A stretch of 36,040 bases of DNA, from positions 1 to 36,040 of the forward strand of contig NZ_JAQMSD010000091.1 of assembly GCF_028330525.1 (NCBI RefSeq), read 5' to 3'. Position 1 is the stretch's first letter, and each line of letters begins with the position of its first letter. Shown here in pieces: positions 1-2,612 of the stretch. The DNA is from Spirulina sp. CS-785/01 (GTDB taxonomy: Bacteria > Cyanobacteriota > Cyanobacteriia > Cyanobacteriales > Spirulinaceae). The translations under genes and the position numbers were made by a program. The notes beneath the pieces were generated by a model. That model was not told the origin of the DNA. It saw nothing but the letters and a program-made list of their open reading frames with translations, and did no database searches.

Positions 1-2
1 CT

Positions 3-131
3 CACTGCGGACTAACTGTTGACCGTGATGAAAATAGTGCCGTTTTGATCAAACGGATTGCTATTGAGTCAGTTGCGGTGGGCAGTCGTAACTCTAAAAC
101 GCTTCCTTCCTTGAAACTAATTCTGGGATGA
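3..131 (+). CDS. tnpB: TnpB (IS200/IS605 OrfB) C-terminal end, partial
   Basis: The open frame from base 3 gives 42 residues ending at TGA 129-131. It begins HCGLTVDRDENSAVLIKRI, the usual end of TnpB: the last half of the zinc-ribbon (CG) followed by the RuvC-III Asp (DRDENSA). TnpB is an RNA-guided nuclease carried by IS200/IS605 elements and the ancestor of Cas12. The rest of the gene lies outside the window, so completeness and activity cannot be judged. The element's right-end hairpin follows directly, which supports the call. Confidence 0.8.
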   Translation, partial: HCGLTVDRDENSAVLIKRIAIESVAVGSRNSKTLPSLKLILG

Positions 132-167
132 GAAGAATCCCACGTCTTTCAGCGCGGGAGATGTCAA
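132..167 (+). mobile_element. IS200/IS605-type right end, with probable 3' part of the omega (reRNA) scaffold
   Basis: Directly after the tnpB stop lies an imperfect hairpin. TCCC at 138-141 pairs with GGGA at 156-159, and CGT at 143-145 pairs with GCG at 152-154 with one wobble and one mismatch. It is followed by GATGTCAA, a common right-end sequence of cyanobacterial IS605 elements. In this family the guide RNA comes from the 3' end of tnpB through the right end and continues into flanking DNA. Here the flank is the 3' end of trmFO. The exact cleavage point is inferred. Confidence 0.65.
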
Positions 168-1504
168 CTTGCATTGATCAACTGGAAACGGCTAAAATTT
201 CGTTTCCAGTCTTCCAAATCTGCTAAGGCGCGATCGCGGTAAAACCCATAACGCTCTCGTTTACTGCGGACGCGCTTCTCTAACGGGGGAATAATCCCAA
301 AATTCGGCGGCATGGGTTGAAAATGCTTAGGAGAAGCCGACGTAATAAAGTTAAACAACGCCCCCATCATAGTAGTTTCAGGCATCGTTAACGGCGGTTC
401 ACCGGACAGCAAACGAGCCGCATTGGTCCCAGCTAACCAACCCCCCGCAGCCGCCGCCGTATAACCTTCCGTTCCCACCAACTGCCCCGCAGCCAACACC
501 GTCTCCCGATGTTCAAACTGCAAGGTATTTTTCAGCAACTGGGGCGAATTAATAAAGGTATTCCGGTGCATCACTCCCATGCGCACAAAATCCGCATTTT
601 CTAACCCCGGAATTAAGCGAAACACCCGCTTTTGTTCCCCCCAGCGTAAATTCGTCTGAAAGCCCACCATATTCCACAGTTGTCCCGCTTTATCCTCCTG
701 ACGCAACTGCACCACCCCATAGGGTTTTTCATCGGGATAACGGGGATCATGGAGTCCCACAGGTTTTAACGGCCCGTAGCGCATGGTATCCTCTCCCCGT
801 TGGGCTAATTCTTCAATAGGCAAACACCCTTCAAAGAACTTCGCATTCTCCCGTTCAAACTCCTTCACCTCCGCTTGTTCTGCCTCACAGAGAGCTTGCC
901 AAAAGCGTAAATACTCCTCCTGATTCAGGGGACAATTGAGATAGGCTGCCTCTCCCTTGTCGTAACGGGAAGCCAGAAAGGCCACCTCTTGATTAATGGA
1001 CTCCCCCACTATAATGGGACTGGCCGCATCAAAAAAGCTCATGTAGTCCATTCCTGTAAAGCGTTGTAAGTCATCGGCTAAGGCCGCACTGGTCAGGGGG
1101 CCGGTGGTGAGAATGACTATTCCTTCCTTGGGAATTTCCGTAATTTCTCCCCGTCGTAGATCAATGAGAGGATGATGGGCGAGGGTTTCAGTTAACTCCC
1201 GACTAAACACGCCTCGATCTACCGCTAACGCGCCCCCTGCCGGGACTTCGTGCTTATCGGCAGTAGCAATAATAATCGACCCCAGACTGCGTAATTCTGC
1301 ATGGAGGAGACCTGCTGCGCGATCGCTATTTTTCGCCCCAAAGGAATTACTACAGACCAATTCTGCCAATTCTTCACTATGGTGGGCCGGACTCATTTCC
1401 ACCGGACGCATCTCATGGAGTACCACCGGAATTCCCGCTTGCGCCACTTGCCATGCAGCTTCTGTTCCAGCTAGTCCACCACCAATTACCTGAATTTGTG
1501 CCAT
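164..1504 (-). CDS. trmFO: TrmFO, folate/FAD-dependent tRNA (m5U54) methyltransferase
   Basis: This cytoplasmic enzyme makes ribothymidine at position 54 of tRNA, using methylene-tetrahydrofolate as carbon donor and FADH2 as reductant. The 446-residue protein opens with an FAD-binding Rossmann motif ([13 protein letters not shown], about residues 6-18), then the family motif HEMRP (30-34) and [12 protein letters not shown] (50-61), which holds one of the conserved cysteines. Later blocks such as [10 protein letters not shown] and [13 protein letters not shown] fit the GidA-small family. Length is normal. The stop codon TGA (164-166) lies in the last bases of the adjoining IS right end, so the native C-terminal tail may have been trimmed or replaced. 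It is transcribed toward tnpB and is convergent with it. Confidence 0.95.
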
Positions 1505-1654: not shown

Positions 1655-1703
1655 TTCCCTGTTCCCTGTTCCCTGTTCCCTTTTCCCTATTCCCTGTTCC
1701 CTC
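1655..1703. repeat. Short tandem heptamer repeat (TTCCCTG type)
   Basis: About seven head-to-tail copies of TTCCCTG/TTCCCTA lie in the 268-bp gap between trmFO and the permease. The complementary strand reads GGGAACA/GGGAATA, the same unit found at 12267-12339 and 34021-34045. Such short tandem heptamers are common in cyanobacterial intergenic DNA. I saw no gene in the rest of the gap. Confidence 0.85.
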
Positions 1704-1772
1704 CTATCACATTTCCATTTAAATACACAACCGCTTAACCAATACCAAACAACCCATAACCTAGCAAAACTC

Positions 1773-2612
1773 TCACCGTTTCACTAAAATTCCCTGAGAC
1801 GGACTCAAGAAAAATGCCAGCCCAAATAACAAAAAAATACTGGTGACAATAGCCGCCCCCGAAGGCACATCTAAATAATAGCTGGCATACATCCCACTGA
1901 GGGTAGAAATTACCCCAAAAATTGACCCTAACCACATCATTTGATGGAGTTCTTTCACTAATAAATAAGCCGTAATCGCTGGGCCTACTAACAGCGACAT
2001 CACCAGCAATACCCCAACCGTTTGCATACTCGCCACAATCGTTAACGTAATAGCACAAATTAAGCCAAAATATAATAAATTAACAGGTAAACCACTGGCT
2101 TTTGCTCCCAAAGGATCAAAGGTATAAAACAATAACTCTTTATAAAATAATTTAGCTAAAATTAACACAATACTGGTAATAATAATTGCTTGCCAAACAT
2201 CCTGACGTTTAACCCCTAAAATATCGCCAAATAATAGACTACTTAAATCAATTTGATTAGTTTCTAATTGAGAAATTAGAATTACTCCCACCCCCAGAAA
2301 AGTGGTTAACGTGAGAGCCATTGCCGCATCGACTTTAACGCGCGATCGCGTTTCAATCGCCGCCACCACCAACGCACTACAAATCCCCGCCAAAAACGCC
2401 CCAATCGCCAAATGCACCTGCAAAAATAACGCCAAAGATAACCCCGGAATCACCGCATGAGCAATCACCCCCCCGATCATACTCATTTGCTTCACAATCA
2501 AATAACTCCCCACCACCGCACACAAAACCCCCAAAATGCCCCCCACCAAGAGGGCATTCCGCATAAATTCAAACGTGAGGGGTTCAAACAACCAAGTGAA
2601 CAGATCGATCAT
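1773..2612 (-). CDS. ABC-3 family metal transporter permease (Mn/Zn type)
   Basis: The 279-residue integral membrane protein has about eight hydrophobic segments and resembles the permease of Mn/Zn/Fe ABC importers (ZnuB/MntB/SitD). The family's conserved block GGVIAHAVIPGLSLALF lies near residues 46-62, and GVLLVMSLLVGPAITAYLL near 200-218. It should sit in the plasma membrane and work with a periplasmic metal-binding protein and an ATPase, but neither gene is adjacent. The ATG is 11 bases after the stop of the large DUF4347 gene upstream, so the two may be co-transcribed. The metal cannot be told from sequence. Confidence 0.85.
   Translation of the reverse strand: MIDLFTWLFEPLTFEFMRNALLVGGILGVLCAVVGSYLIVKQMSMIGGVIAHAVIPGLSLALFLQVHLAIGAFLAGICSALVVAAIETRSRVKVDAAMALTLTTFLGVGVILISQLETNQIDLSSLLFGDILGVKRQDVWQAIIITSIVLILAKLFYKELLFYTFDPLGAKASGLPVNLLYFGLICAITLTIVASMQTVGVLLVMSLLVGPAITAYLLVKELHQMMWLGSIFGVISTLSGMYASYYLDVPSGAAIVTSIFLLFGLAFFLSPSQGILVKR

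What the first reader, a model, noticed from the sequence alone, without database searches (positions are those of the whole stretch)
3..200. IS605/TnpB right end lies on the trmFO stop codon, so the omega RNA guide would read trmFO
The IS right end GATGTCAA contains the trmFO stop (TCA 164-166 on the plus strand). The RNA running off the right end would carry about 16-20 bases from 168 onward as guide, matching the 3' end of trmFO. TnpB could then cut an empty trmFO allele and promote its own return. The TrmFO C-terminus may be IS-encoded.
Basis: partly seen in the sequence, partly recalled or inferred. Interest (0 to 1): 0.5.

Follow-up and report, generated by a model that had tools for sequence, protein, structure and literature searches.

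The report
Jumping gene lands in stop codon
A bacterial jumping gene sits exactly in the stop codon of the trmFO gene of a cyanobacterium, and its own end supplies a new stop, so the protein keeps its length; related elements seem to do the same more often than chance would give.

Summary
Eight copies of the element in this genome agree up to window base 167 (except base 142) and then diverge, so the right end is ...GATGTCAA|, ending at 167, and the trmFO stop (TCA 164-166) is element sequence. Contig C118 carries the other side of the insertion. Left ends, plus a histidine-kinase gene that rejoins in frame, give the target TTAT. The element is IS605-type (tnpB 3' end, GAAT guide, hairpin, TCAA, as in IS608). 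Bases from 168 would be the omega-RNA guide against the empty trmFO allele: the published TnpB model, untested here. One claim needs correcting: the rebuilt empty site ends ...INAR-TAA, the occupied one ...INAS-TGA. Length stays 446 aa; only the last codon's third base and the stop are IS-encoded. More generally, TTAN and TCAN read as N-TAA and N-TGA on the other strand, in the same register, so landing on a convergent TAA stop swaps stop for stop. Of 166 related cyanobacterial insertions, 13 (7.8%) do this with an ORF of at least 200 codons, against 1.8% of available TTAG sites (p = 2e-4). Harmlessness alone could explain the excess.

The parts
1..131 (+). 3' end of tnpB of the insertion sequence, stop codon TGA at 129-131
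   Evidence: read (frame 3); same motif order in the full relative L166; 28/29-167 shared with 7 other contigs
135..138 (+). GAAT, the place and letters of the IS608 right guide sequence GR
   Evidence: IS608 GR is GAAT (PMC5934647, passages)
139..158 (+). right-end hairpin CCCACG-loop-CGCGGG; A142 breaks a pair that is G-C in the other 7 copies
   Evidence: fold of the last 67 bases -19.4 against -24.8 kcal/mol
164..167 (+). right cleavage site TCAA; the element ends at 167
   Evidence: 8 copies diverge at 168
164..166 (-). trmFO stop codon TGA, supplied by the element
168..183 (+). predicted 16-nt omega-RNA guide (trmFO 3' end, antisense)
   Evidence: inferred from PMC8612924 (passages); only perfect match in the genome is here
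164..1504 (-). trmFO, 446 aa

Best explanation
An IS200/IS605-family element of the IS608 kind (divergent tnpA and tnpB, target TTAT, right end TCAA) inserted directly 3' of a plus-strand TTAT that was the reverse complement of A-TAA, the end of trmFO. Read on the minus strand, the gene's last codon now takes its third base from the element (T) and the next codon is the element's TGA. A stop was exchanged for a stop, the length stayed 446 aa, and Arg446 became Ser. Shown: the right end, the left ends, the target, the empty site by joining the two flanks, and the unchanged length. Inferred from known TnpB biology: the omega-RNA of this copy would end in 168 to about 183 and lead TnpB to TTAT + CTTGCATTGATC..., the empty trmFO allele, so that repair puts the element back. 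Because TTAN and TCAN both read as a stop on the other strand in one register, convergent TAA stop codons are harmless landing places for such elements.
For: Right end at 167 in 8 copies. Seven left ends, six of them ...TTATCTTTAACCCTGAG. C118 is the partner contig: the sequence downstream of trmFO in 15 of 70 relatives matches C118 and none of the five other left-end contigs compared. The histidine-kinase gene split between C96 and C314 rejoins in frame with TTAT kept, and would meet TGA with TTATC. Empty site gives 446 aa ending INAR. The relatives L166, L167 and L170 also show TTATC at their left ends. IS608: TTAC, TCAA, GAAT. Guide from the right flank and TAM = insertion target in ISDra2. 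Stop exchange seen again: 13 of 166 insertions.
Against: No empty allele of a close strain was available; no genome of the same genus came up among the relatives listed, so the empty site is a reconstruction from two contigs. The interior of this copy is not assembled, so its tnpB and tnpA may be broken. A142 weakens the right-end hairpin. No RNA or cleavage data.
Confidence: 0.8

Rival explanations
1. The insertion truncated or extended TrmFO, so the present C-terminus is an IS-made novelty.
For: Stop codon and third base of the last codon come from the element. If the target were TTATC, the empty-site frame would run on 17-18 codons past the junction (LE C118, frame 1).
Against: With TTAT, the target that the histidine-kinase joint requires, the empty site stops at the same codon; 69 of 70 relatives end in the same range, positions 436-451.
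Confidence: 0.08
2. The stop-codon excess among related insertions is only survival: elements land at random on TTAN, insertions inside genes are lost, and those at stop codons or gene ends remain.
For: Sites 0-20 nt past a gene end are also somewhat over-represented (7 of 166 against 15 of 830, p = 0.06). Insertion at a stop is neutral by sequence logic.
Against: The background already leaves out coding sites and the excess at stops is still 4-5 fold; but insertions in promoters may also be lost, which this count does not model.
Confidence: 0.6
3. The RNA running off the right end acts mainly as an antisense RNA on the trmFO mRNA 3' end, not as a TnpB guide.
For: The plus-strand flank is antisense to trmFO.
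Against: No RNA data; about 16 nt at the very 3' end; the guide role is what is known for ISDra2.
Confidence: 0.05

Closest known systems
IS608 (Helicobacter pylori; IS200/IS605 family)
   Same: Right end with guide GAAT, hairpin, cleavage site TCAA; insertion 3' of a TTAN tetranucleotide that stays in the left flank (PMC5934647, passages)
   Different: Target TTAT instead of TTAC; tnpA and tnpB divergent in the full relative; cyanobacterial host
ISDra2 TnpB with reRNA (Deinococcus radiodurans)
   Same: tnpB 3' end and right end followed by a flank that would be the guide; TAM = insertion target (PMC8612924, passages)
   Different: ISDra2 target TTGAT; guide activity shown there, only predicted here
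IS605 elements of Halanaerobium hydrogeniformans
   Same: Divergent tnpA and tnpB (PMC7290912, passages)
   Different: The passages seen say nothing about insertion into stop codons of host genes

Membership tests
IS200/IS605 family, IS605 type | Y1 transposase gene tnpA next to the left end | tested here: met
   the left-end contigs carry the last 26-31 positions of Y1_Tnp, PF01797; full divergent tnpA and tnpB only in the relative L166, not in this copy
IS200/IS605 family, IS605 type | tnpB | tested here: met
   3' end in the window; related full-length TnpB in L166
IS200/IS605 family, IS605 type | subterminal hairpins at both ends, no terminal inverted repeats, insertion 3' of a fixed short target without duplication | tested here: met
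   right-end hairpin; left end with CCCTCGCC...GGCGATGGG, read; TTAT kept once, in-frame joint
TnpB RNA-guided nuclease system | intact RuvC active site in this copy | tested here: inconclusive
   only the last motif (DRDENSA) is in the window; the interior is not assembled
TnpB RNA-guided nuclease system | omega-RNA (reRNA) from the tnpB 3' end and right end with flank-derived guide | not testable with these tools
   needs small-RNA sequencing; no Rfam family matched window 1-400 except one chance-level match, E 0.29
TnpB RNA-guided nuclease system | TAM equal to the insertion target beside the guide match in the empty site | tested here: met
   TTAT directly before CTTGCATTG... in the rebuilt empty site; cleavage not tested

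The most novel reading that the evidence does not exclude
IS605-type elements whose target reads N-TAA on the other strand (TTAN) and whose right end reads N-TGA (TCAN) use the stop codons of convergent genes as safe harbours: the two sequences are matched so that a stop is exchanged for a stop in the same register, and TnpB then guards the site with a guide made of the host gene's own last codons. The register and a 4-5 fold excess are shown here; that the match is an adaptation rather than neutral survival is not.
Probability: 0.35. Interest if true: 0.65.

Novelty: new member of a known kind. Interest (0 to 1): 0.42.

Why it matters
It turns a guess about one gene into a checkable rule: in IS608-like elements the target and the right end are both reverse-complement stop codons in one register, so insertion at a TAA stop of a convergent gene is silent. 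That would help to explain how such elements settle in gene-dense genomes at the ends of useful genes (here trmFO; elsewhere genes with sigma-70, phosphofructokinase, AAA_3/MoxR-type and ParA-type domains), with a TnpB guide made of host coding sequence.

Tried and rejected
Rfam on window 1-400, E up to 1: one match, E 0.29, taken as chance. Right-end DNA against 388 genomes of the order: 8 with matches, the own genome among them, the rest partial; used to find full relatives. The own genome searched with the C104 derivative did not show the left ends (best other left match C129, E 0.1); they came through the tnpA C-terminus. Target TTATC considered and rejected. The automatic left-end finders ask for TTA or TYA, so the equal lengths before and after insertion that they print follow from the request; they are not used as evidence. 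Only comparison of copies is used: from the 148 rows I picked by hand 20 whose shared sequence starts at or within 3 bases of TTA[GT]C (18 TTAGC, 2 TTATC); most other rows stop near the tnpB start and say nothing about the left end, and some (L205, L225, L227) start at or next to TCAGC, which would read as TGA; not pursued.

Against the reading: with ORFs of 100 codons 11 of 166 insertions have a long ORF in one of the other two frames, broken genes or chance ORFs. Set 2 alone, at 200 codons, is weak: 5 of 79, binomial p = 0.04 against 2.4% and 0.09 against 3%, shares counted with 100-codon ORFs; p = 0.024 against the like-for-like 15 of 830.

Full report
What is there. The window is the whole contig C72 (36,040 bases) of a 5.4 Mb genome in 351 contigs. 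It is cyanobacterial: its closest trmFO relatives are, and Spirulina subsalsa FACHB-351 (L016) shows the same trmFO tail and downstream sequence as L107 of genome G004, listed as same family. The minus-strand ORF 164-1504 is trmFO (446 aa; TIGR00137 matched over residues 3-435, profile 2-431 of 433). The 167 bases beside it are the right end of an insertion sequence: tnpB 3' end with its stop at 129-131, GAAT at 135-138, a hairpin at 139-158, TCAA at 164-167.

Where the element ends. Window 1-300 found seven more near-identical copies (99%), each at a contig end, and an 88% copy inside C104. The eight agree up to base 167, apart from base 142 (A here, G in the other seven), and differ from 168 on.

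The other end and the target. Y1 transposase C-terminal pieces at contig ends led to seven left ends: six contigs (C325, C118, C112, C96, C46, C131) read ...TTATCTTTAACCCTGAG, and C247 (98%) differs at its tip. The sequence downstream of trmFO in 15 of 70 relatives (L016 and L107 showing the same sequence) matches C118; none of the 70 matches the five other left-end contigs compared; C131 was found later and not compared. So C118 is the left side of this insertion. C96 and C314 hold the two parts of one histidine-kinase gene, which rejoin in frame (...SLLNSKA-Y-KKGITLDY...) if TTAT stays and the right end stops at TCAA; with TTATC the joint reads TGA. The target is therefore TTAT. Three relatives show TTATC at their left ends too (L166, L167, L170). 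IS608 has target TTAC, right cleavage site TCAA and guide GAAT (PMC5934647, passages).

What it did to trmFO. The empty site joined from C118 and C72 reads ...ATC AAT GCA AGA TAA: 446 aa ending INAR. With the element it reads ...ATC AAT GCA AGT TGA: 446 aa ending INAS. The target TTAT was the reverse complement of A-TAA, the gene's own end. Relatives end at positions 436-451 of this numbering in 69 of 70 and at 493 in one, with no evident conservation in the tails listed, so no effect on the enzyme is expected (inference).

Guide. In ISDra2 the last about 16 nt of the reRNA come from the flank of the right end, and TnpB cuts next to a motif equal to the insertion target (PMC8612924, passages). 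By that model the guide here is 168-183, CTTGCATTGATCAACT. Its only perfect match in the genome is this place; one more site has 2 mismatches, and a reversed control pattern also gave one match, so that is chance level. The rebuilt empty allele carries TTAT directly before it. This is standard TnpB biology with trmFO as target; nothing here shows that this copy makes the RNA. Against it: A142 breaks one pair of the hairpin (-19.4 against -24.8 kcal/mol over the last 67 bases), and the interior of the copy is not assembled.

A general rule. On the other strand TTAN reads N-TAA and TCAN reads N-TGA. A minus-strand gene can meet the right end in three frames. In one of them the target's TTA would be an in-frame TAA, which can only be the gene's stop, and the element then supplies TGA at the same codon. 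Set 1: 110 loci (L198-L307) from the listing, which covered 388 genomes of the order and was cut at its end (fetched); right end found in 97; 88 usable after dropping 7 with short flanks and 2 duplicates. Set 2: 90 loci (L308-L397); right end found in 88; 79 usable after dropping 7 duplicates and 2 with short flanks. Minus-strand ORFs of at least 200 codons that reach the right end: 8 and 5 in the stop-exchange frame, 0 and 0 in the other two. At 100 codons: 8 and 10 in that frame, 3 and 9 in the others. Of the 13 ORFs, 9 match Pfam domains (sigma-70, phage integrase, DUF3318, AAA_3, pentapeptide, ParA-type AAA_31, chromate transporter, phosphofructokinase, sulfotransferase) and 4 match none (L273, L268, L320, L337).

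Expected share. In 68 cyanobacterial trmFO loci (392 kb), of the TTAN sites that are non-coding or at a stop, those at a stop with a 200-codon ORF are 15 of 830 TTAG, 23 of 1076 TTAT and 11 of 638 TTAC. Observed with flanks of at least 1000 bases: 13 of 166; with 100 codons 18 of 166, and 11 in the other frames. Fisher, one-sided: 13 of 166 against TTAG, odds ratio 4.6, p = 1.8e-4; against the three pooled 4.3, p = 6e-5; set 1 (8 of 88) p = 8e-4; set 2 (5 of 79) p = 0.024. Sites 0-20 nt past a gene end are also somewhat over-represented (7 of 166 against 15 of 830, p = 0.06), so part of the excess may be a general tolerance of gene ends.

Limits. Most of the related right ends read TCAC; where copies allow the left end to be fixed, the target is TTAG in 18 and TTAT in 2 of 20 hand-picked cases. 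Four of the 13 stop exchanges (L198, L220, L326, L372) are among these 20; for the other nine the target is assumed from the group. The two sets share genomes, not sites. Genes in the background were called by ORF length only. Three of the 13 ORFs run to the end of the fetched stretch.

Literature. Five searches of the open-access library for stop or termination codons with IS605, IS608 or TnpB (listings, some cut; passages of PMC7290912, PMC5934647 and PMC8612924) showed no title or abstract beginning that describes exchange of stop codons by such insertions. The library lacks most subscription journals, so this is weak evidence of novelty.

Verdict. The guide inference is sound, ordinary and untested. 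The C-terminus claim becomes a stop-for-stop exchange, which looks like a recurrent, moderately enriched habit of this group of elements.

Noticed in passing
L143 (C104 of the own genome), about 2083-2266, minus strand: A 184-bp derivative of the element: left end and right end with a tnpB 3' fragment, 88% like window 63-167, no genes inside.
   Followed up: partly
C112 left end and C221 right end (L183, L006): The histidine-kinase ORF running into the C112 left end and the receiver-domain ORF leaving the C221 right end fit in frame over TTAT, but the ATPase part between them would be missing; possibly a deletion between two copies (read by eye).
   Followed up: no
C247 left end (L187): A 98% copy whose outermost bases differ from the six other left ends (no TTATCTTTAACC), a changed or differently joined left tip.
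   Followed up: no
C200, C129, C104:93-124, C310, C305 and others of the own genome (L188-L196): About 32 bp of the left-end hairpin region recur at several places without the rest of the end (85-97% identity in most rows), perhaps small derivatives.
   Followed up: no
L205, L225, L227 near the left end: Some relatives begin at or next to TCAGC instead of TTAGC; TCAG would read C-TGA, again a stop on the other strand.
   Followed up: no
window 1656-1705: Short tandem TTCCCTG-type repeats between trmFO and the metal-type ABC permease ORF 1773-2612; gene name by eye.
   Followed up: no
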